Shown here: positions 36,384 through 54,262 of the stretch, piece by piece
Layout of the letters: the number at the start of each line of letters is the position of its first letter
Position numbering within the stretch: the first letter of the stretch is position 1
NCBI RefSeq assembly: GCF_031157275.1
Contig: NZ_JAVIFW010000001.1
Span: forward strand, 744,001-808,000
DNA: 64,000 nucleotides
Direction: 5' to 3'
DNA from: Streptomyces sp. LHD-70
Lineage (GTDB): Bacteria > Actinomycetota > Actinomycetes > Streptomycetales > Streptomycetaceae
Made by a program: the position numbers and the translations under genes
The notes under the pieces: model-generated
Seen by the model: only the letters and a program-made list of their open reading frames with translations
Database searches by the model: none
What the model was told of the DNA's origin: nothing

Positions 36384-37247
36384 CTACGTGCGGGTGGCCC
36401 GCTCGCTCAAGGACAAGGTCCGCCGCGCCGCCGCCACCACCGCCGCGTCCACGAAACGGCCGTCGGGGAGGGCCAGTGCGCCACCCCCTTCCGACTCCGC
36501 CGCCTTGACGATCTCCTCCGCCGCCGCGACCTCCGCCGGATCCGGCAGGTAGGCCCGCTCGATCACCGGCAGCTGGCGCGGGTGGATCGCCGCGCGGCCG
36601 AGGAAGCCGAGGGCGCGGCCATGGGCGCAGGACGCGGCGAGGCCGTCCACGTCGCGGATGTCCGGGTAGACGGACTGGGTCGGGGGAGCGAGCCCCGCAG
36701 CGCGGCTCGCGCAGACCACACGGGAGCGGACCCAGTCCAGGCCGGAGTCGCTCGCGCCCAGGTCGGCCCGGAGATCCGCCTCACCCAGGGTGAGGCCGCG
36801 CAGGGCGGGGTGCGCGGTGGCGAGGGTGTACGCGCGCTCGATGGCGAGGGCCGATTCGAGCAGGGCGAACAGCGGCAGGGAGTCCGTGAGTTCGGCGACC
36901 CGGACCACCTGGTGGGGGTCCGTGACCTTCGGCAGCCGCAGGCCCGCGAGGCCCGGCAGTCCGGTGAGGGCGAGCAGATCGGCCCCGGCGTACGGGCCGT
37001 CCAGCGCGTTGACGCGGACGTGCACCGGCACCGGGTGGTGGGCGGTGAGTAGCTCGGCGGTGGCGGAGCGGGCGTACTCCTTGCGCTCGGGGGCGACCGC
37101 GTCCTCGAGGTCGACGACGACGGCGTGCGCGCCGGAGGCGAGCGCCTTGGCGACGGTCGTGGGGCGGTCGCCGGGTGCGTACAGCCAGGTGAGGGCTGGT
37201 GCGGGGGCGGTGTTCAGCGCGTCGGTGTACATCGCGTCGGTGGTCAT
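36384..37247 (-). CDS. HpcH/HpaI aldolase / citrate lyase beta (CitE-like) protein
   Basis: A 287-residue TIM-barrel lyase of the CitE-like class acting on CoA thioesters. WLYAPGDRPTTVAKAL opens the barrel, VVVDLEDAVAPERK carries the family's acidic metal-binding residue, and LFALLESALAIERA the second. HPRQLPVIERAYLP near the end is the conserved CoA-side segment. It overlaps the CoA-transferase stop by four bases (ATGA), so the two are coupled; together they could activate and cleave a dicarboxylic or hydroxy acid. It is the last gene of the six-gene minus-strand unit. Confidence 0.88.
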   Translation of the reverse strand: MTTDAMYTDALNTAPAPALTWLYAPGDRPTTVAKALASGAHAVVVDLEDAVAPERKEYARSATAELLTAHHPVPVHVRVNALDGPYAGADLLALTGLPGLAGLRLPKVTDPHQVVRVAELTDSLPLFALLESALAIERAYTLATAHPALRGLTLGEADLRADLGASDSGLDWVRSRVVCASRAAGLAPPTQSVYPDIRDVDGLAASCAHGRALGFLGRAAIHPRQLPVIERAYLPDPAEVAAAEEIVKAAESEGGGALALPDGRFVDAAVVAAARRTLSLSERATRT

Positions 37248-38440
37248 ACGGCGCCGGTCTTTCGTAGGTCGGTGATCTCCTCGTCGCCGAGGCCGAGTTC
37301 GGCCAGGACGGTGTCGGTGTCCGCGCCGTGCGGGCGGCCCGCCCAGCGGATCGCACCCGGCGTCGAGGAGAGGCGGAAGAGGACGTTCTGCATACGGATC
37401 GCGCCGAGTTCGGGATCGTCGACCGTCGTGACGGAGTCGAGGGCCGCGTACTGCGGATCGGCGAGGACGTCCCGTACGTCGTGGATCGGGGCGATCGCGG
37501 CCTCGGCCTTCTCGAAGGCGGCGATGACCTCGTCGCGGGTGCGCTGGGCGATCCAGTCGCCGACGGCCGCGTCCAGGACGTCGGCGTGCGCGGCGCGGTC
37601 CGTGCCGGTCGCGAACCAGGGCTCGTCGATCAGGTCGGGCCGGCCGACGAGGTGCAGCACGCGCTCCGCGATGGACTGCGCGGAGGTGGAGACGGCCACC
37701 CAGCGGTCGTCGGCGGTGCGGTAGGTGTTGCGGGGCGCGTTGTTGGTGGAGCGGTTGCCGGTGCGCGGCTGGACGAAGCCGAGCTGGTCGTACCAGAGCG
37801 GCTGCGGGCCGAGGACCGTGAGGATCGGCTCGATGATCGCCATGTCGACGACCTGGCCCCGGCCGGTGGCGGTGCGCGCGGCCAGCGCCGTCATGATCGC
37901 GTACGCGGTGGCCAGACCGGCGATGGAGTCGGCGAGGCCGAACGGGGGCAGTGTGGGCGGGCCTTCCGGCTCACCGGTGATCGCCGCGAAGCCGCTCATC
38001 GCCTCGGCGAGGGTGCCGAAGCCGGGGCGGTGCGAGTACGGGCCGAACTGGCCGAACCCGGTGACGCGGGCGAGCACCAACTGCTCGTTGGCGGCGCTGA
38101 GTTCGTCCCAGCCGAGGCCCCAGCGCTCCAGAGTGCCGGGGCGGAAGTTCTCGATCACGACGTCCGCGGTGGCGGCGAGGCGAAGGAGGGTGGCGCGGCC
38201 GCCGTCGGTGGAGAGGTCGAGGGTGACGGTGCGCTTGTTGCGGCCGAGCAGCTTCCACCAGAGGCCGACGCCGTCCTTGGCGGGGCCGTGGCCGCGGGAG
38301 GGGTCGGGGCGGCGGGGGTGCTCCACCTTGATCACTTCGGCGCCGAAGTCGCCGAGCATGGTGGCGGCGAGGGGGCCGGCGAAGAGGGTGGCGAGGTCGA
38401 GGACGCGGAGGGGTTCGAGGGGTGCGGGCTGAGGGTGCAT
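37244..38440 (-). CDS. CaiB/BaiF family (class III) CoA-transferase
   Basis: A 398-residue class III CoA-transferase. Family features: LRVLDLATLFAGPLAATMLGDFGAEVIKVEHP, LGRNKRTVTLDL, VVIENFRPGTLERWGL, and GRGQVVDMAIIEPIL. By eye the catalytic Asp of the family (as in formyl-CoA transferase) aligns with the Glu of AIIEPIL, a conservative but notable change. ATG 38440 has AAGGA upstream; the much longer open frame is a shadow over the next gene. It overlaps the CitE-like gene and follows the ADP-ribosylglycohydrolase array after 41 bases. Confidence 0.9.
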   Translation of the reverse strand: MHPQPAPLEPLRVLDLATLFAGPLAATMLGDFGAEVIKVEHPRRPDPSRGHGPAKDGVGLWWKLLGRNKRTVTLDLSTDGGRATLLRLAATADVVIENFRPGTLERWGLGWDELSAANEQLVLARVTGFGQFGPYSHRPGFGTLAEAMSGFAAITGEPEGPPTLPPFGLADSIAGLATAYAIMTALAARTATGRGQVVDMAIIEPILTVLGPQPLWYDQLGFVQPRTGNRSTNNAPRNTYRTADDRWVAVSTSAQSIAERVLHLVGRPDLIDEPWFATGTDRAAHADVLDAAVGDWIAQRTRDEVIAAFEKAEAAIAPIHDVRDVLADPQYAALDSVTTVDDPELGAIRMQNVLFRLSSTPGAIRWAGRPHGADTDTVLAELGLGDEEITDLRKTGAV

Positions 38441-38481
38441 GCAGGTGGTCCTTGGCGTGTGTGCGGGCCGGGACTTGTCGT

Positions 38482-39969
38482 TCAGCGCACTCGGCGCGGT
38501 GGCGTTGTGCCCACCCGTTCCGCCCTGCGGAACGATTGCCCACAACGGGGGGAGCGGGATGATTGCCCACAACGGGCGTACGTGAGTTGGGCGAGCTCGT
38601 CGAAGCCGATTCCGTCGAAGTCGCCTACGGACGTGGCGAGTTGGTTCTTGAGCGGGGCCGTCCAGCGGGGGTCGATCGCGTCCGGGTGTCCCGCGAGCAG
38701 GCCCGCGACCGAGCCCGCCGTGGCGCCGTTGGAGTCCGTGTCCCAGCCGCCCGACACCGCCCGCGTCACCGAGCCGTCGAAGTCCCCGTCGGCGTGGGTG
38801 AGCGCGGCGGCGAGCAGCGCGGCGTTGGGCACGACGTGCACCCAGTGGTGGGTGCCGTACGCGGCGTGCAGGGTGTCGACGACCGTGTCGAACGCCGTGT
38901 GCGTACGCGCGAGCCGGATGCCGTGCCGCACGGCCCGCGCGAGCCGGGAGCCGGGCGGTACGACGGCGAGCCCGGCGCGCAGCGCGCTGTGCACGTCGGC
39001 GGTCCCGCCCGCGGCCGAGGCGATCGTGGCCGCCGCGAACATCGCGCCGTACACGCCGTTCGCGGTGTGCGTGAGGCACGCGTCCCGGTGGACCTGCTCG
39101 GCGGCGGCGCCGGGGTCGCCTGGGTGGGTCAGGCCGTGCACGTCGGCGCGGATGAGGGCGCCGATCCACTCGCGGAACGGGTTGCGGTGCCGGGCCGTGC
39201 GCGGGGGTTCGACCCCGTCGAGGAGATTGCGGTACGCGACGCGCTCGGCGGTGAACGTACGGCCCGCCGGGAGCTCGTCAAGCCAGAGCGCGGCCACGTC
39301 ACGGGTCGTGAAGCCGGGCCCGTACCGCCGTAGCAACTCCAGGTTCAGCAAGGGGTAGTTGAGGTCGTCGTCCTCCGGCATGCCGTCGATGTTCTCGGCG
39401 AGCGAGGTGGGGGCGCTGCGCCGGTTCCACGGGTAGGCGGCGGCGAGTGCGGGGGACAGGCCGCGGGCTGTGAAGTAGCCGGTGAGGGGCCAGTTGCCGG
39501 TGGCGCGGGCGAGGGCGCGGATGCCGGTGAGGGGCAGTTTCTCGACGGGCTTGCCGAGCAGGCACCCGACGGCGCGGCCCAGCCAGGCGGCGTGCAGCCG
39601 GTCGAGGTCGGCCCCGGCGACGGGGTCGGGGGAGGGCCAGACCGTGCCGCAGAGCGCCCTGATCGCGGGCAGCTCGGTGGGTTCGGCGTACGGGTCCTGG
39701 GGTGTCGACTCGTCCAACTCGTCCAACTCGTCCAACTCGTCCAGCTCGTCGAGGAGTTGGACGGCAAGGCGGCGCAGTTCGGGGGCGGCGGGGGTGGTGG
39801 CGGCGCCCGCGCGGACCGGGGCCGGGGCGCCGCCCGCCGTGCGCCAGCGGTGCTCGATGTCCGCGACCGCCCGTGCGTCCCGGCCGTCCTCGGCGGCCTG
39901 GCGCAGCTCGTGGCCGAGCAGGTCCTCCGGCTGCACCCAGGTCAGCCGCAGCGCGGTGGCCGGGCTCAT
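38482..39969 (-). CDS. ADP-ribosylglycohydrolase family protein (paralogue D, with N-terminal extension)
   Basis: A 495-residue protein. The first ~110 residues are an extension containing four or five LDE repeats encoded by a nine-base tandem repeat (about 39707-39753). The ADP-ribosylglycohydrolase (DraG) fold follows: AWLGRAVGCLLGKPVEKLP, then MPEDDDLNYP in place of the usual TDDT metal motif, and GGWDTDSNGATAGSVAGLLAG near the C-terminus. The metal ligands are thus mostly kept but the first motif is changed. The last ~30 residues (CGQSFRRAERVGTTPP) are encoded by an interspersed repeat, so the original end was probably near LTYAR. ATG 39969 overlaps the stop of paralogue C. Substrate unknown. 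Confidence 0.85.
   Translation of the reverse strand: MSPATALRLTWVQPEDLLGHELRQAAEDGRDARAVADIEHRWRTAGGAPAPVRAGAATTPAAPELRRLAVQLLDELDELDELDELDESTPQDPYAEPTELPAIRALCGTVWPSPDPVAGADLDRLHAAWLGRAVGCLLGKPVEKLPLTGIRALARATGNWPLTGYFTARGLSPALAAAYPWNRRSAPTSLAENIDGMPEDDDLNYPLLNLELLRRYGPGFTTRDVAALWLDELPAGRTFTAERVAYRNLLDGVEPPRTARHRNPFREWIGALIRADVHGLTHPGDPGAAAEQVHRDACLTHTANGVYGAMFAAATIASAAGGTADVHSALRAGLAVVPPGSRLARAVRHGIRLARTHTAFDTVVDTLHAAYGTHHWVHVVPNAALLAAALTHADGDFDGSVTRAVSGGWDTDSNGATAGSVAGLLAGHPDAIDPRWTAPLKNQLATSVGDFDGIGFDELAQLTYARCGQSSRSPRCGQSFRRAERVGTTPPRRVR
38487..38549. repeat. Interspersed repeat, left copy (C-terminus of paralogue D)
   Basis: Shares a 27-base identical core (38507-38533) and similar flanks, about 62 bases in all, with 42329-42390 in the same orientation. 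The core forms a hairpin (GTTCCGC-CCT-GCGGAAC). The trailing segment (attgcccacaacggg) is tandemly duplicated here. This element type is common between Streptomyces genes. Confidence 0.8.
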
Positions 39970-41144
39970 GCCGGGTCGCCCGCGAGCAGCTGGAAGGCGT
40001 CCGCGTGCGCGGCCCTGCGCTCCTGGTCGCGGGCGAACACCTCGCGGGCCACCGCCGCGAGCAGCTCCGCCGGAGCGTGCAGGTCGAGCCGGCTGGCCTC
40101 GGCGACCTGCTTGGCCCAGTCCTGTGGCGGTCCGGAGCCGAGGGCGCCCGCGATCGCGCCGCCCATCGTGGCGATCGAGTCGCAGTCCCGGCCGTAGTTG
40201 ACGGAGCCGAGCACCGTACGGCGGTATTCGCCCGCGCCGACAAGGAGCATGCCCAGGGCGATGGGGAGTTCCTCGATGGCGTGCAGCCGGGAGGGGCGGC
40301 GGGCGCCGAGCGAGGGGGCGCGGTAGTCGGGGCCGACCGTGTCGAAGGGGGCTACGGCCTCGCGCAGCGGGCGAAGCGCGGTCTCGAAGTCCTGGTGGCG
40401 CACGGCGACTTCGCAGACCGCCTCGATCGCGGCGCGCGTGCCGTCCTTGGCGAGGCGGAGGCAGGCGTCCACGACCGAGGCGGGGCTGGCCTCGGGTGCG
40501 CAGGCCGCCGCGACCGCCGCCGCGAACACCCCGGCCGCCTCCCTGCCGTACGAGGACTGGTGGGCGCCCGCGACGTCCAGGGCCTCGGTGTAGGCGGCGC
40601 GCGGGTCGGCCGCGTTGACCAGGCCGACCGGCGCCATGTACATCGCCGCGCCGCAGTTGACGATGTTGCCGGTGCCGGCCTCGCGCGGGTCGACGTGGGC
40701 GTAGTGCAGACGGGCCACGATCCACTTCTCGGCGAGGAAGATCCGCTGCAGCGGCAGCGCCTCGGCCTCGAGTTCGGGGATCCAGCGGGGCGTGCCCATC
40801 AGGTCGGGGACGAGGTGGTCGGCGACCGCGTACGCGTCGAGGTGGTCGCGGACCGTGGCGTAGACGCGGACCAGCGCGTGGGTCATCAAGGTGTCGTCGG
40901 TGATGTGCCCGTCGCCCTTGTGGTACGGGGCGATCGGCCGGGCCGTACGCCAGTCGTCCCCGTGCCAGGGGCCGACGATGCCGTTGACCCGGCCGCCGTG
41001 ACGCTCGCTGATCTGCTCGGGCGTCCAGCCCTCGACGGGCCCGCCGAGCGCGTCGCCGACCGCGGCGCCGACGAGGCTCGCGGTGATGCGTTCGTCGAGC
41101 GTGGGCCTGCGCGCCTGCGGTGTGGTGTCTGTTGTGTCGGTCAT
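39966..41144 (-). CDS. ADP-ribosylglycohydrolase family protein (paralogue C)
   Basis: A 392-residue DraG-type enzyme predicted to remove ADP-ribose from proteins or small molecules. It has the full set of motifs: VGAAVGDALGGPVEGW, GHITDDTLMT (metal-binding TDDT) and NYGRDCDSIATMGGAIAGAL (C-terminal DxD metal site). ATG 41144 is taken, although its Shine-Dalgarno is weak. It is coupled to paralogue D by an ATGA overlap and follows paralogue B by 25 bases. Of the four, this one and A look most clearly active. Confidence 0.9.
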   Translation of the reverse strand: MTDTTDTTPQARRPTLDERITASLVGAAVGDALGGPVEGWTPEQISERHGGRVNGIVGPWHGDDWRTARPIAPYHKGDGHITDDTLMTHALVRVYATVRDHLDAYAVADHLVPDLMGTPRWIPELEAEALPLQRIFLAEKWIVARLHYAHVDPREAGTGNIVNCGAAMYMAPVGLVNAADPRAAYTEALDVAGAHQSSYGREAAGVFAAAVAAACAPEASPASVVDACLRLAKDGTRAAIEAVCEVAVRHQDFETALRPLREAVAPFDTVGPDYRAPSLGARRPSRLHAIEELPIALGMLLVGAGEYRRTVLGSVNYGRDCDSIATMGGAIAGALGSGPPQDWAKQVAEASRLDLHAPAELLAAVAREVFARDQERRAAHADAFQLLAGDPA

Positions 41145-41169
41145 GGGGCGGAGTGTCCACCCGGAGCGG

Positions 41170-42420
41170 TCAGTTGTGGCGGGGGCGCGACAGCACGTCG
41201 GCCAGTTCGGTGCCCAGCTCCACCAGATCGGTCCCCGCGAGCCGGGGCAGCGCACAGCCCGACAGGGTCCGGCAGGCGTCCCGCCAGCTCTTCGGCACAC
41301 CCGCTGCGCCGCCGAGCGCACCGGTCAGGGCGCCCGCGAGCGCCGGCGCCGAGTCCGCGACCCGCGACAGGCAGGCGGCGGCGGGCACGGCCTCGGCGAG
41401 ACTGCCGCGCGCCGCGGTGGCCAGGGCGAGGGCCACGGGCACGGTCTCGGCGGCGGCGATCCCGTAGCTGTAGACGTGGTCCACGATCTGGTGTTCCAGG
41501 AGGGGTACGAGGACGAAGGTGCCGTTCTCGTCGGCGTGCCGGGCGAGGTGTACCGCGAGGCGGGCGTTGCGGCCGATCTCGGTCTCGTGCGGGAGCTGGT
41601 CGAGGGCGGCGTCGACGACCTCGTCCACGTCGGGTCGTCCTTCCGGCTGCGCGAGCGCCACGGCGACGGCGGCGGCGATCGCCCGGGCGCCGTGCACGCC
41701 GTCGCCGTCGTTCGTGTAGCGGGCGTCGAACTCGGCGAGCTCGGCGGCGGCTCGGGGATCGCCGGGGTGTACGGCGGCGAGCACGGCGGCCCGTACGCAG
41801 GCCGCGTCGTCGAAGAAGTGCGGGTTGTCGTGCCCGGTGGCGGGCGGGCGCAGGCCGGTGGCGAGATTGCCGAGCCCGGCGCGTACGGAGATCCGCGCCC
41901 GCAGCGGGATCTGCGCCGACTCGACCTCGGGGGCGCGGTCCGCTGCCGCGGCGATCTGGGCGGCGAGGATCTGCCAGTGGTGGTCGATGGCGGCGCGGAC
42001 GTCTCCCGTTCCCTCAACTTCCGCTGCCAGTACGGCGGTTGCGGTGTACGCGGCCCACTCGGCGTCGTCGGAGGGGCCGAGGCGGAGGGGTTCGGGGGGC
42101 TGGTTGAGGGCGATGGGGACGGGGAGGGTGGTGGTGGCGTTCTGCTCGGCGAAGGTGTCGAGTTCTCGGGTCAGTCTTCTCGTCCACTCCGGCATGCGTG
42201 CCGCTCTGTGTCTGGCCGCGGGCCAGCCCGCTGCGTCGCCTGCGGCGAGGCCCAGTAGTAGGCCCTGTAGTTGGGCGCCCTGGACCGGGGTTGCCCTCGC
42301 TGGTCGTGGGTTGGACCCCTCCTTCAAGGCACTCGGCACCGGGGGCTGTGCCCACCCGTTCCGCCCTGCGGAACATCTGCCCACAGCGGGTACGGAGTCG
42401 CTGCCCGCAGCGCTACTCAT
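41170..42420 (-). CDS. ADP-ribosylglycohydrolase-like protein (paralogue B, divergent active site)
   Basis: A 416-residue member of the same family. LLLGLAAGDAAGWP and LGPSDDAEWAAYTA correspond to the first two motifs. The C-terminal metal motif reads CLSRVADSAPALAGALTGAL, with Val where the first Asp of GRDADT is expected, so catalysis is doubtful. Residues about 10-33 are encoded by the interspersed repeat at 42329-42390, inserted between the start codon and the domain. ATG 42420 overlaps the stop of paralogue A (ATGA). It may be a regulatory or binding pseudoenzyme working with its neighbours; this is inference. Confidence 0.82.
   Translation of the reverse strand: MSSAAGSDSVPAVGRCSAGRNGWAQPPVPSALKEGSNPRPARATPVQGAQLQGLLLGLAAGDAAGWPAARHRAARMPEWTRRLTRELDTFAEQNATTTLPVPIALNQPPEPLRLGPSDDAEWAAYTATAVLAAEVEGTGDVRAAIDHHWQILAAQIAAAADRAPEVESAQIPLRARISVRAGLGNLATGLRPPATGHDNPHFFDDAACVRAAVLAAVHPGDPRAAAELAEFDARYTNDGDGVHGARAIAAAVAVALAQPEGRPDVDEVVDAALDQLPHETEIGRNARLAVHLARHADENGTFVLVPLLEHQIVDHVYSYGIAAAETVPVALALATAARGSLAEAVPAAACLSRVADSAPALAGALTGALGGAAGVPKSWRDACRTLSGCALPRLAGTDLVELGTELADVLSRPRHN
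42329..42390. repeat. Interspersed repeat, right copy (N-terminus of paralogue B)
   Basis: The core 42348-42374 is identical to 38507-38533. The two copies are direct repeats 3.8 kb apart and flank paralogues B (mostly), C and D. It lies in frame inside the N-terminal coding region of paralogue B. Confidence 0.8.
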
Positions 42421-43421
42421 GGCGTCTCCTCCGGCGTCAGCAAGTCCGCGATGTCCAGGACGTGGTAGCCCGCCATCGAGGGGAGGCAGGTGCCGCGGAC
42501 CGGGCCGATGGTGCGGGCCCAGTCCGGGGGGATGGCGGTGATCGTGCGGTGTGCGCCCGCGAGTGCGCCCGCGAGTGCCGCCGTCGTGTCCGCGTCGCGG
42601 CCCATGTTGACCGCGGTCAGGACTGCCTCGCGGAAGTCGCCGCGGGCCGCCGCGAACGCGCCGAAGGCGAGGCCCACCGCCTCCGGGGCGAGGTCCGTCC
42701 ACGGGTAGCCGCCGATCACCACCGCCTTGCGGACCGCGCGGTCGCCGCCCGGTGCCGCCACCACCGCGCGGCGCAGCGAGCGGGACGTCCAGGAGTCCAG
42801 GGGGATCACCGAGAGCGCCGCCCCGATGACGGCCGCCGGGCCCTCGCCCACCATGGCCGCGGCGACGCCCGCCGCGATGGCCTGCGCGCCGTAGATGCCC
42901 TCGCCGTCGTGGCTGACTGTGCCGTCGATGGCGACCAGGCGGGCCGCCTCGGCCGGGTCGCCCGCGGCGAACACGCCGAAGGGGGCCGCGCGCATCGCGA
43001 GCCCGTCGCTCCAGGCGTGCCGGTGCTGTGCGGTGACGGGTGCGGCGAGGCCGCGGCGGAGGTTCTCCAGGGTGCCGCGTTCGCTGAACCCCGCGCCGCG
43101 GAACGGGCCTTCGTCGACGTCCGCGATCCACCGGTGCCAGGCCTTCTCGGCGTGCGCCACGGTCAGGGCCGAGCCGTGCCGGGCGAGCAGCAGGCCCGAG
43201 AAGATCGCGTACTCGGTGTCGTCCGTGCCCGCCGGGTCCTCGGCGACGAAGCCCTCGATGCGGCCCCAACGGCGGCGGATCTCCGAGGGCTTCATGTTCT
43301 CGACGGGGGCACCGAGCGCGTCGCCGACCGCGAGGCCGAGCAGTGCGCCGCGGGCGCGGGGCCGGAGCTCTGCCGCGTCGCCGGGTGCGGGTACCGGGAA
43401 ATCGCATGCAATCGACGCCAT
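42417..43421 (-). CDS. ADP-ribosylglycohydrolase family protein (paralogue A)
   Basis: A 334-residue DraG-type protein, the first gene of the array. Motifs are intact: ALLGLAVGDALGAPVENMKP, GTDDTEYAIFSGLLLA and NMGRDADTTAALAGALAGA. The frame runs further upstream, but ATG 43421 puts the domain about 25 residues from the start as in relatives. The Shine-Dalgarno is weak. It is divergent from the VIT-family gene across 271 bases, which must hold the operon promoter. Confidence 0.9.
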   Translation of the reverse strand: MASIACDFPVPAPGDAAELRPRARGALLGLAVGDALGAPVENMKPSEIRRRWGRIEGFVAEDPAGTDDTEYAIFSGLLLARHGSALTVAHAEKAWHRWIADVDEGPFRGAGFSERGTLENLRRGLAAPVTAQHRHAWSDGLAMRAAPFGVFAAGDPAEAARLVAIDGTVSHDGEGIYGAQAIAAGVAAAMVGEGPAAVIGAALSVIPLDSWTSRSLRRAVVAAPGGDRAVRKAVVIGGYPWTDLAPEAVGLAFGAFAAARGDFREAVLTAVNMGRDADTTAALAGALAGAHRTITAIPPDWARTIGPVRGTCLPSMAGYHVLDIADLLTPEETP

Positions 43422-51100: not shown

Positions 51101-52396
51101 ATGAAGCGACGTGTCATCGCGGCGGGGATCGCCCTGACGCTCGGCCTGACCGCGACGGCATGCGGCGAGGGGTCGGGCGGGGAGGACTCCGCGACCGACG
51201 GCAAGGGCAAGACCCTCACCGTATGGATCATGGAGGGCACCAACCCGGACGCGCGGCCCTTCTTCAAGGAGGCCGCGGCGGCGTTCAAGAAGAAGACCGG
51301 CGCCGACATCAAGGTCGAGTACCAGCAGTGGGCCACCGGCCAGAAGAAGTTCACGACCGCGATCGAGGGCGGCGCCGACCAGGTCCCGGACGTCGCGGAG
51401 GTCGGCACCACCTGGGTGCCGCAGTTCGCCGAGACCGGCGCGCTCGTCGACGTCACCGGCAAGGTGAAGGAGTCCGGGCTCGGCGACGACCTCGTCGAGG
51501 GCCTCAAGGACGCGGGCACCCTCGACGGCAAGCAGTACGGCATGCCCTGGTACGCGGGCGTGCGCTCGATCGTGTACCGCAAGGACCTGTTCGAGAAGCA
51601 CGACATCAAGCCGCCGACGAACTGGAAGGAACTGACCGCCGCCGCCAGGACGCTGAAGGAGAAGGAGCCCGACAAGGTCGCCTTCCCCGTCGCGGGCGGC
51701 GCCGAGATGTTCGCGACCGCGTTCATCTGGGGCGCGGGCGGCGAGCTCGCCACCGAGAAGGGCGGCAAGTGGAAGTCGGCGATCAACTCGCCGAAGTCCG
51801 TCGAGGGCATCGAGTACTACACCGGCCTCGCCACCAAGGAGAAGGTCTCCCCGGCCAAGGTGAACACCTGGACCGAGAAGGAGGTCGGCGACGCCTGGAA
51901 CAAGGGCCAGATCTCCATGTCCGTCGGCGGCAACTGGACGCCGAAGGCCATCGTCGACGCCAACCCCGACCTCAAGGGCAAGCTCGGCGCCATCCCGATC
52001 CCCGGCAAGGACGGCGGCATGAGCCGCTCCTTCCTCGGCGGCTCGTACCTCTCCACGTTCAACACCGAGAACAAGGATTTGGCCTGGGAGTTCGTGAAGC
52101 TCCTGACCACCGGCGAGTTCGCCGCCAAGTGGGCCGAGCAGACCAACTACTTCCCCGGCCAGAACTCCGAGCTGGAGAAGGTCGCCGCGAAGAAGGACCC
52201 GCTGGTCGAGCCCTTCGCGAAGCAGATGCTGGAGGCCGGCGCCACGGTCCCGAAGACCAAGGCGTACGGCGAGATCCAGGCCTCGCAGGTCGTCACCGGC
52301 ATGGTCCAGTCGATCCTGAGCGGCAAGGCGAGCGTCCAGGAGGCCGCCGACAAGGCCGCCAAGGACATGGACGCGATCTTCGCCAAGGACGAGTGA
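51101..52396 (+). CDS. Extracellular solute-binding lipoprotein of a carbohydrate ABC importer
   Basis: Family 1 solute-binding protein, 431 residues. The signal sequence MKRRVIAAGIALTLGLTATAC ends in a lipobox with the lipidated Cys at about 21, a substrate for the Lgt encoded in this window. The mature domain shows KTLTVWIMEGTN, PDVAEVGTTWVPQFAE and FLGGSYLSTFN, typical of malto- or oligosaccharide binders. The start has AGGAGG at 8 bases. Two permease genes follow at once. The exact sugar cannot be read from the sequence. Confidence 0.92.
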   Translation: MKRRVIAAGIALTLGLTATACGEGSGGEDSATDGKGKTLTVWIMEGTNPDARPFFKEAAAAFKKKTGADIKVEYQQWATGQKKFTTAIEGGADQVPDVAEVGTTWVPQFAETGALVDVTGKVKESGLGDDLVEGLKDAGTLDGKQYGMPWYAGVRSIVYRKDLFEKHDIKPPTNWKELTAAARTLKEKEPDKVAFPVAGGAEMFATAFIWGAGGELATEKGGKWKSAINSPKSVEGIEYYTGLATKEKVSPAKVNTWTEKEVGDAWNKGQISMSVGGNWTPKAIVDANPDLKGKLGAIPIPGKDGGMSRSFLGGSYLSTFNTENKDLAWEFVKLLTTGEFAAKWAEQTNYFPGQNSELEKVAAKKDPLVEPFAKQMLEAGATVPKTKAYGEIQASQVVTGMVQSILSGKASVQEAADKAAKDMDAIFAKDE

Positions 52397-52409
52397 GGAC
52401 GGCGCGCAG

Positions 52410-53423
52410 GTGAAGCCAAGCAAGACGCTCATCGACGGGAGCGGGCCGGACGCCGGGGACACCCTGACGGCCGGCCGCCCCGCCCCCGCGAACCCCCCGA
52501 CCGACAAGGCCGCGCTCCGCCGCCGCAGAAGGGTCGAACTCACCCGCCCCTGGCTCCTGTTGGCGCCCGCCCTGATCGTCCTGGCCGGACTGCTGCTCTG
52601 GCCGCTCATCCAGGTCGGCAAGCTCTCTCTGCAGGACTACGAGGTCAAGTTCGGCGGCGGCGTCGGCACCTTCACCGGCTTCGACCACTACACCGACCTG
52701 CTCACCAGCGGTCTGCTCTGGAAGACCGTCCTGCCCAACACGGTGTTCTTCGCCGTCGCCTGCGTCGGCCTGACCATCGCCCTCGGCACCCTCGTCGCGC
52801 TGCTGCTCAACCGGCTCGGCACCACCTGGCGGCTGATCTGCTCGATCGCGATCCTCGCCGCCTGGGCGATGCCCGCCGTCACCGGCACGTACGTCTGGAT
52901 CTGGCTGTTCCAGCCGCAGGACGGACTGTTCAGCCAGCTCGCGGGCGCCGCCGGCCTGATCGACCCGGCGACCACCAACTGGTTCACCGAGCGGCTGCCG
53001 TTCTACGCCATCGCCACCCTGAACGTGGTCCACCACGGCTTCCCGTTCGTCGCCATCACCGTCCTCGCCGGCCTCCTCACCATCCCCAAGGAGCTGTACG
53101 AGGCGGGCATGCTGGACGGCGCCAACGCCTGGCAGCGGTTCTGGAAGATCACCGTGCCGACGATCAAGCCGGTGTTCCTCGTCGTCACGATCCTGTCGAC
53201 CATCTGGGACTTCAAGGTCTTCACGCAGATCTTCGTGATGCCGGGCGGCAACGGCTCCAACCCGGACGTCTACAACCTCGGCGTCTTCTCGTACATCGAG
53301 GCGTTCGCCAAGAACGACTACGGGGCCGGCTCGGCGGCGGCCGTGCTGCTCACGCTGCTGCTGCTCGCCATCACGATCGTCTACATCCGCACGCTGTTCC
53401 GGCAGGGGGAGGAGGACCTGTGA
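52410..53423 (+). CDS. Carbohydrate ABC transporter permease (MalF-like)
   Basis: A 337-residue inner-membrane subunit with six spans after a ~45-residue basic N-terminus. The EAA loop that contacts the ATPase is visible as EAGMLDGANAWQRFWKITVP. GTG start; it lies 13 bases after the binding protein and overlaps the second permease by four bases. No ATPase gene is present; in Streptomyces such importers share the MsiK ATPase. Confidence 0.92.
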   Translation: MKPSKTLIDGSGPDAGDTLTAGRPAPANPPTDKAALRRRRRVELTRPWLLLAPALIVLAGLLLWPLIQVGKLSLQDYEVKFGGGVGTFTGFDHYTDLLTSGLLWKTVLPNTVFFAVACVGLTIALGTLVALLLNRLGTTWRLICSIAILAAWAMPAVTGTYVWIWLFQPQDGLFSQLAGAAGLIDPATTNWFTERLPFYAIATLNVVHHGFPFVAITVLAGLLTIPKELYEAGMLDGANAWQRFWKITVPTIKPVFLVVTILSTIWDFKVFTQIFVMPGGNGSNPDVYNLGVFSYIEAFAKNDYGAGSAAAVLLTLLLLAITIVYIRTLFRQGEEDL

Positions 53424-54262
53424 GCACCCAGAGCCAGACCAAGGGCTCGGCCGTGCGCCGGCTCGGGCTCGGCGCCGCCGTCGCCGCGCTCCTCGTCTTC
53501 ACGCTCTTCCCCGTCTACTGGATGGTCTCCACCGCGTTCGACCCGAAGGCCCTGACCCGCGGCTCCGGCCTGCTGCCCAGCGGCGTCACGTTCGAGCACT
53601 TCCAACTGGTCTTCGAGCGCGGCAACTTCGGTACGTATCTGCTGAACTCGGCGATCGTCGGCGGTGCGACCATCCTGGCCGCCGCCCTGCTTTCGCTGTT
53701 CGCGGCGATCGCGGTGGCCCGGTTCAGATTCCGCTTCCGCACCTCCGTACTGATCATGATCCTGATCGTGCAGATGGTGCCGTTGGAGGCCCTGGTCATC
53801 CCGCTCTTCATCCAGATGCGGGACTACGAGATGCTCAACTCGCTGCTCGGTCTGAGCGTCGTCTACATCGCGCTCTCGCTGCCGTTCGCGATCTGGACGC
53901 TGCGCGGATTCGTCCAGACCGTGCCGAAGGAGGTCGAGGAGGCCGCGTACATCGACGGGGCGTCCTGGCCGCGGATGTTCTGGTCCGTGCTGCTTCCGCT
54001 GGTCGCGCCCGGCCTCGTCGCCACGTCGATCTTCGCGTTCATCACCGCGTGGAACGAGTTCGTGTTCGCGTACACCTTCATGAAGGGCAGCGACAAGTAC
54101 ACGGCCGCGGTGGGCATCTACCAGTTCTTCGGCGAGAACTCGACGGCCTGGGGCCCGGTGATGGCCAGCTCCACGCTCGTCACCGTGCCCGTGATGATCT
54201 TCTTCGTCGTGGTCCACCGCAAGCTCGGCTCCGGCCTCGCGGCGGGGGCGGTCAAGGGCTGA
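53420..54262 (+). CDS. Carbohydrate ABC transporter permease (MalG-like)
   Basis: A 280-residue partner permease with six spans. The EAA loop is EEAAYIDGASWPRMFWSVLLP, and the protein ends soon after the last span. GTG start overlapping the MalF-like gene. A strong hairpin terminator follows at 54277-54310, closing a three-gene operon. Confidence 0.92.
   Translation: MSTQSQTKGSAVRRLGLGAAVAALLVFTLFPVYWMVSTAFDPKALTRGSGLLPSGVTFEHFQLVFERGNFGTYLLNSAIVGGATILAAALLSLFAAIAVARFRFRFRTSVLIMILIVQMVPLEALVIPLFIQMRDYEMLNSLLGLSVVYIALSLPFAIWTLRGFVQTVPKEVEEAAYIDGASWPRMFWSVLLPLVAPGLVATSIFAFITAWNEFVFAYTFMKGSDKYTAAVGIYQFFGENSTAWGPVMASSTLVTVPVMIFFVVVHRKLGSGLAAGAVKG

What the first reader, a model, noticed from the sequence alone, without database searches (positions are those of the whole stretch)
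36384..43421. Six-gene operon with four consecutive ADP-ribosylglycohydrolase paralogues plus CoA-transferase and CitE-like lyase
Four DraG-type genes lie head to tail on one strand, coupled by ATGA overlaps (A/B and C/D) and short gaps, and run on into a class III CoA-transferase and a CitE-like protein that also overlap. The paralogues have diverged in length and active site, which suggests division of labour rather than simple copies. I know of no described pathway combining several de-ADP-ribosylating enzymes with CoA-ester chemistry; an ADP-ribose-linked metabolite or conjugate turnover system is one possibility.
Basis: partly seen in the sequence, partly recalled or inferred. Interest (0 to 1): 0.7.

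Follow-up and report, generated by a model that had tools for sequence, protein, structure and literature searches.

The report
Ribose-compound digestion operon with ADP-ribose hydrolases
Four enzymes of a family best known for removing ADP-ribose marks from proteins sit, with two CoA-handling enzymes, in a gene block that in many related bacteria also carries a sugar-type importer, a sugar-type repressor and usually a ribose kinase, so they likely digest an imported ribose-containing compound instead of unmarking proteins.

Summary
In detail: four ADP_ribosyl_GH (PF03747) genes, a family III CoA-transferase and a CitE-like lyase lie head to tail at 36384-43421 (-); the other five ARH genes of this genome lie on other contigs. 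A-D are four old orthologous groups, and the measured genes are under purifying selection. All six genes recur together in 58 of 81 well-flanked distinct loci. In the 54 loci outside the Streptomyces trp/gltB site the block comes with a LacI-type regulator and an ABC sugar-type importer (54/54), mostly a ribokinase (47/54) and sometimes an amylase-fold/FGE protein (25/54). One Streptomyces keeps the whole operon at exactly the window's site. In this genome the importer lies on another contig; regulator and kinase orthologues were not found. My reading: uptake and breakdown of a small ribosyl compound, ARH-fold hydrolases freeing ribose, E and F consuming an acid moiety as a CoA ester. Substrate unknown, no step assayed; published recombinant SCO2028 and SCO2030 (by gene counting A and C) showed no activity on uracil-ADP-ribose. 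My literature searches found no description of this operon.

The parts
42417..43421 (-). Gene A: ARH-fold protein, 334 aa, complete metal motifs (TDDTEY; GRDADT)
   Evidence: PF03747 203.9 bits; motif counts; always with B in the loci
41170..42420 (-). Gene B: ARH-fold protein, up to 416 aa, first Asp of second metal motif missing (SRVADS), conserved as such; true start uncertain
   Evidence: PF03747 117.5 bits; dN/dS 0.18-0.21 in three comparisons
39966..41144 (-). Gene C: ARH-fold protein, 392 aa, complete metal motifs; the ARH found in every locus by selection
   Evidence: PF03747 162.2 bits; model pLDDT 83.5 with ARH fold
38482..39969 (-). Gene D: ARH-fold protein, 495 aa, N-terminal extension of about 120 aa, altered first motif (EDDDLN), second motif GGWDTDS
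   Evidence: PF03747 167.7 bits over residues 127-428; tail partly coded by repeat element
37244..38440 (-). Gene E: family III CoA-transferase, 398 aa
   Evidence: PF02515 407 bits; best NCBIfam NF052585 238.2 bits, cut-off 750
36384..37247 (-). Gene F: CitE-like C-C lyase, 287 aa
   Evidence: PF03328 107.2 bits; best NCBIfam RipC 149.8 bits, cut-off 375
42347..42385 (-). Copy of a recurring palindromic element inside the annotated 5' end of B
   Evidence: close variants found at three exact-pattern places in the genome
38506..38544 (-). Second copy of the element, 3' end of D, where 15 of 27 trp-site relatives have a PfkB kinase gene between D and E

Best explanation
The six genes are the enzyme core of a larger actinobacterial operon (LacI-type regulator, two ABC permeases, sugar-type solute-binding protein, ARH-fold proteins A-D, ribokinase, CoA-transferase E, CitE-like lyase F) that likely imports and digests a small ribose-containing compound, with the ARH-fold proteins predicted to cut its ribosyl bond. 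Shown here: gene content and order, their conservation, ARH fold of C (model) and metal motifs, ribokinase match of the kinase in relatives, and an importer homologue on another contig of this genome. Inferred: (1) the importer takes up an alpha-riboside-like conjugate; (2) C, helped by A with its metal-deficient partner B and by D, hydrolyses ribosyl linkages with a binuclear metal centre that holds the cis 2,3-diol of the ribose; (3) ribose becomes ribose 5-phosphate through the operon ribokinase, in this strain perhaps through the ribokinase-like gene at C6:207868; (4) a released carboxylic acid is turned into a CoA thioester by E and split by F, giving for example acetyl-CoA and an oxoacid. 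The Streptomyces version at the trp/gltB site would be a reduced form that lost its local regulator and importer and, in this strain, its kinase.
For: Operon content: at 54 distinct well-flanked loci outside the trp/gltB site LacI, permease and solute-binding protein are present in 54/54, PfkB in 47, E and F in 48; domains by Pfam in L069, L071 and L073. Streptomyces sp. HNM0575 (L193) holds the whole operon between VIT/gltB and lgt/trp, the window's own site. Kinase: TIGR02152 ribokinase 312.4 bits vs cut-off 299.65 in L132, 295.7 in L073; residues aligned to N14, D16, G42, K43, N46, E143, D255 of ribokinase 1gqt are identical (ribose-contact roles recalled). Importer in this genome: permease 70% and SBP 62% identical at C6:343694-346748. 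The unlinked SBP occurs in 14 of 21 Streptomyces with the array and 0 of 6 without (Fisher p 0.006). ARH chemistry needs both metals and the cis 2'',3'' hydroxyls of the distal ribose while adenosine contacts differ between classes (PMC7050489, passages). Purifying selection: dN/dS 0.17-0.39 in 15 of 18 comparisons, the other 3 failed on a stop codon. Distant D-like genes also lie by ABC sugar-type genes (L074) or a PfkB gene (L076).
Against: No substrate is known and nothing was assayed. 7 of 21 array-bearing Streptomyces lack the unlinked importer, and kinship is not corrected for. The kinase is missing in 12 of 27 trp-site and 7 of 54 other loci, E and F in 6 of 54. No LacI or operon-kinase orthologue was found in this genome (best 35% and 47%), and no shared operator of array and importer was seen. 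A paralogue of D sits by NUDIX and SIR2 genes, which suggests an NAD-related role there. The SBP matches sugar-binding proteins only weakly, and the amylase-fold protein of other operons would suit a hexoside as well.
Confidence: 0.5

Rival explanations
1. De-ADP-ribosylation module: A-D remove ADP-ribose from proteins, nucleic acids or small molecules with different linkages, and E and F handle a linked acyl conjugate.
For: PF03747 membership, complete metal motifs in A and C, C's model close to ARH3 and DraG structures; S. coelicolor's ARH genes are listed as candidate erasers (PMC9411070, PMC5087735, passages).
Against: Operon context of importer, sugar-type repressor and ribokinase; SCO2028 and SCO2030 inactive on U-alpha-ADPr; A and C far below the DraG and Tri1 equivalog cut-offs.
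Confidence: 0.15
2. Same catabolic plan, but the sugar is not ribose: the ARH-fold proteins cut another cis-diol furanoside (apiose-like) or an N-glycoside, and the kinase is a relaxed PfkB.
For: CUT1-type importer parts and an amylase-fold protein in 25 of 54 loci; the kinase of L073 is just under the ribokinase cut-off; some operons, e.g. L144, have no kinase.
Against: L132's kinase passes the ribokinase cut-off and keeps the ribose-site residues.
Confidence: 0.2
3. E and F are a separate module that merely travels with the ribosyl-hydrolase operon.
For: E and F are missing together from 6 of 54 non-trp loci; in L143 they lie before LacI.
Against: They are in 48 of 54 non-trp and 27 of 27 trp-site loci, also in reduced operons such as L144 and L150.
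Confidence: 0.1
4. In this strain the six genes are a decaying remnant without function.
For: Local regulator, importer and kinase absent, repeat elements at two gene ends.
Against: No internal stops; dN/dS below 0.4 in all 15 usable comparisons; all six kept in 27 of 27 trp-site loci; importer homologue present elsewhere.
Confidence: 0.05

Closest known systems
Ribose or nucleoside utilisation operons (LacI-type RbsR/CytR regulator, ABC importer, nucleoside hydrolase, RbsK ribokinase); recalled
   Same: Regulator type, importer, a glycosidic hydrolase and a ribokinase in one block
   Different: The hydrolases are ARH-fold, there are up to four of them, and a CoA-transferase and CitE-like lyase follow; regulator scores are below every equivalog cut-off
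ARH family erasers: DraG, ARH1, ARH3, Tri1
   Different: Far below the DraG and Tri1 equivalog cut-offs; operon context; B degenerate; SCO2028 and SCO2030 inactive on U-ADPr
Itaconate/citramalate or dicarboxylate breakdown by CoA-transferase plus RipC/CitE-like lyase
   Same: Same two enzyme classes side by side; RipC and dicarboxylate CoA-transferases are the best named matches
   Different: Scores 149.8 vs 375 and 238.2 vs 750, no hydratase in the block, and ARH neighbours
ARH-fold subunits of non-ADP-ribose machines (chloroplast Ycf2/Orf2971-FtsHi motor)
   Different: A and C keep the metal motifs, so they look catalytic

Membership tests
ADP-ribosylglycohydrolase family (PF03747) | Domain match above curated cut-off | tested here: met
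   A, B, C, D: 203.9, 117.5, 162.2, 167.7 bits vs 26.2
ADP-ribosylglycohydrolase family (PF03747) | Both metal motifs (T/S-D-D ... D-x-D-T/S; residue roles partly from PMC7050489, partly recalled) | tested here: inconclusive
   A and C complete, D has E in place of T in the first motif, B lacks the first Asp of the second
ADP-ribosylglycohydrolase family (PF03747) | Hydrolysis of an ADP-ribosyl bond | not testable with these tools
   Published: SCO2028 and SCO2030 inactive on U-alpha-ADPr (PMC13036486, passages); mapping to A and C by gene counting
DraG equivalog (TIGR02662) | Score above 337.05 bits | tested here: not met
   A 83.7, C 39.2, B and D no listed match
Tri1 ADP-ribosylarginine hydrolase (NF041672) | Score above 490 bits | tested here: not met
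   A 51.0, C 33.4, B 20.3
Family III CoA-transferase (PF02515) | Domain match above cut-off | tested here: met
   E 407 bits vs 23.3; no substrate-specific NCBIfam equivalog reached, best 238.2 vs 750
RipC citramalyl-CoA lyase (NF038242) | Score above 375 bits | tested here: not met
   F 149.8 bits; PF03328 met at 107.2
Bacterial D-ribokinase (TIGR02152) | Score above 299.65 bits (kinase of relatives; absent from the window) | tested here: met
   L132 312.4, L073 295.7 just under; only these two of the relatives' kinases were scored
LacI-controlled ABC sugar operon | LacI-type regulator, permease and SBP_bac_1 protein next to catabolic enzymes | tested here: met
   54 of 54 non-trp-site loci; at the trp/gltB site only 2 of 27 have LacI and 1 of 27 the importer; in this genome the importer is unlinked

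The most novel reading that the evidence does not exclude
ARH-fold enzymes have been recruited as a dedicated set of metabolic ribosidases: an actinobacterial operon scavenges ribosyl conjugates from the environment, with C as the universal alpha-ribosidase, A plus a metal-deficient partner B and the long-form D as alternative specificity modules, and a CoA-transferase/lyase pair burning the acid aglycone. A whole nutrient pathway would rest on a fold known mainly for removing ADP-ribose.
Probability: 0.35. Interest if true: 0.8.

Novelty: new variant of a known kind. Interest (0 to 1): 0.62.

Why it matters
Bacterial ARH-family genes are commonly read as ADP-ribosylation erasers, and those of S. 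coelicolor are counted that way (PMC9411070 and PMC5087735, passages). If four of them belong to a pathway that eats a ribosyl conjugate, the ADP-ribosylation capacity of Streptomyces is over-counted and an unknown ribosyl nutrient awaits identification. The operon makes this directly testable, because its solute-binding protein, LacI-type regulator and kinase each offer a cheap handle on the substrate. The conserved metal-deficient partner B is also a clean case for asking what a degenerate ARH does.

Tried and rejected
Literature: searches combining ARH with CoA-transferase, ribokinase, LacI, riboside, ABC transporter or sugar-regulon terms, CitE-like lyase terms, and SCO2028-SCO2031 gave no description of this operon; only open-licence PMC papers are searched, and most hits were seen as listings only.

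Recent tandem duplication rejected: A, B, C and D each form one group across families. In the first tree two other ARHs of this genome came out on very long branches and one translation held stops; I dropped all the other-genome-ARH rows and rebuilt. Warnings about long branches remain, so I draw no conclusion on how the four groups relate to each other.

Decay rejected for this window: no internal stops, dN/dS 0.17-0.39 in 15 of 18 comparisons; the 3 others (C and D against L061, D against L064) failed on a stop codon in the aligned span, so D rests on one comparison.

A hidden gene in the A-B gap: 17 of 88 arrays have gaps over 400 bases; these are 72-84% GC and the tblastx rows that I saw (the first 29, all one pair) were scattered and at most 55% identical. 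I read them as low-complexity extensions, not proven.

A shared operator of array (33 upstream sequences) and importer (15) was looked for by eye and not seen. The sigma-70 scan found no promoter-like site, and four terminator-like sites where shuffles give 1.2.

The search of D over 296 phylum genomes gave array-type matches only in the same genus; D-like relatives at 31-43% identity elsewhere lie outside such arrays where I looked (L074-L076).

The amylase-fold/FGE protein was modelled to guess the substrate; it names an amylase-like barrel and an FGE-like domain, no substrate. The VIA and Foldseek lists exclude no family that is not listed.

Full report
What is in the window. Six minus-strand genes lie head to tail at 36384-43421: A (334 aa), B (416), C (392), D (495), E (398), F (287). 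A-D are ADP_ribosyl_GH proteins, E a family III CoA-transferase, F an HpcH/HpaI (CitE-like) lyase. Spacings are -3, +26, -3, +42 and -3 bases. The genome has nine ARH genes: these four and five on five other contigs. The flanks read as trpB, trpA, a dsbA-like gene and lgt on one side (named by eye) and VIT1 and a gltB-like gene on the other. Counting genes from SCO2038 (trpX; PMC5036795, abstract in the listing) to the ARH homologues SCO2028-SCO2031 (PMC9411070, passage), A-D should be SCO2028-2031, E SCO2032 and F SCO2033. This mapping is inference.

A recurring palindromic element lies in the 5' end of annotated B and another copy in the 3' end of D (42347-42385, 38506-38544). The A/B overlap is therefore unsafe; in 13 relatives the match to B starts anywhere from residue 7 to 66. 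The C/D overlap is supported, since D's match starts within the first ten residues in all 13, counting the N-terminal pieces where D is split. The copy in D lies where many relatives have an extra gene.

Conservation. D was searched in 61 family genomes: nine of ten same-genus genomes (own included) and five of 51 others carry its orthologue, three of these five in two pieces. The 13 arrays fetched, from three genera, all hold A-B-C-D-E-F in order on one strand; nine of 13 have a PfkB gene between D and E, which the window lacks. In 296 phylum genomes D gave array-type matches only in the same genus. C was searched in 296 class genomes: by my count of the rows 48 have a strong match (E below 1e-75), 22 of 28 in the same genus and 26 in other genera; I fetched 20 of those 26.

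The full operon. The 113 loci reduce to 107 distinct ones, 81 of them with enough flank on both sides. At 27 the block is at the trp/gltB site: A-F 27/27, PfkB 15, LacI 2, importer 1. At the other 54: LacI, permease and solute-binding protein 54 each, C 54, D 53, E and F 48, PfkB 47, A and B 38, the amylase-fold/FGE protein 25. All six A-F are in 58 of 81. The loci were chosen by holding C and by similarity and are not independent. In the 84 flanked loci before removal of duplicates A never occurs without B, nor E without F. Streptomyces sp. HNM0575 (L193) has LacI, permeases, SBP, A, B, C, D, PfkB, E, F between VIT/gltB and lgt/trp, the window's own site, and L211 keeps only LacI there. So the window's six genes look like the reduced core of a complete operon. 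Other operons are smaller in other ways: L144 has C, D, E, F but no A, B or kinase; L150 has C, A, B, E, F but no D.

Where the rest went in this genome. Importer orthologues (permease 70%, SBP 62%) are on contig C6 at 343694-346748. No LacI orthologue (best 35%) or operon-kinase orthologue (best 47%) was found; both best hits are neighbours on C6 near 207000. The unlinked SBP occurs in 14 of 21 Streptomyces with the array and in 0 of 6 without it (groups; Fisher p 0.006). Seven of 21 array genomes lack it, and kinship is not corrected for.

The acid branch. E is closest to a succinate-glutarate CoA-transferase model and F to the itaconate-pathway lyase RipC, both well below cut-off. A hydroxy- or dicarboxylic moiety ending as acetyl-CoA plus an oxoacid is my guess; six of 54 operons do without E and F.

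What is known. S. coelicolor's ARH genes are listed as uncharacterised (PMC9411070, passage), and recombinant SCO2028 and SCO2030 showed no detectable activity on U-alpha-ADPr (PMC13036486, passages). My searches found no report of the operon.

Verdict. The feature is real and widely conserved. The likeliest role is catabolism of an imported ribosyl compound (0.5); a catabolic operon for another glycoside (0.2) and de-ADP-ribosylation (0.15) come next.

Noticed in passing
G000:C12:194550-195704 (L094:8548-9630); L087:7647-8720, L088:7444-8529, L089:7912-9045: A paralogue of D (about 47% identical) lies near NUDIX, SIR2 and Ada/AlkA genes in several Streptomyces; a candidate for a genuine NAD or O-acetyl-ADP-ribose role.
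   Followed up: partly
L132:13030-15033 and 24 further non-trp-site operons: A 620-750 aa protein with an amylase-like barrel (no Pfam match for it) fused to an FGE/EgtB/SenA-like domain sits in the operon.
   Followed up: partly
window 42347-42385 and 38506-38544: A palindromic element (TGTGGGCA..TTCCGC..GCGGAAC..TGGGCACA type) recurs in this genome (three exact-pattern places) and has become coding sequence at two gene ends here.
   Followed up: partly
L146: A MAG labelled Bifidobacterium breve carries a C gene 89% identical to that of an uncultured freshwater actinobacterium, probably a mislabelled or mixed bin.
   Followed up: no
L187, L188, L196, L198, L212, L213: Six complete-looking operons (four Nonomuraea, Marinitenerispora, one Streptomyces) lack E and F altogether.
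   Followed up: partly
window about 51290-54160: Weak matches to the sugar ABC permease and solute-binding protein (G000:C1:795290-798160) show a second sugar-type importer within the window, not related to this block as far as seen.
   Followed up: no
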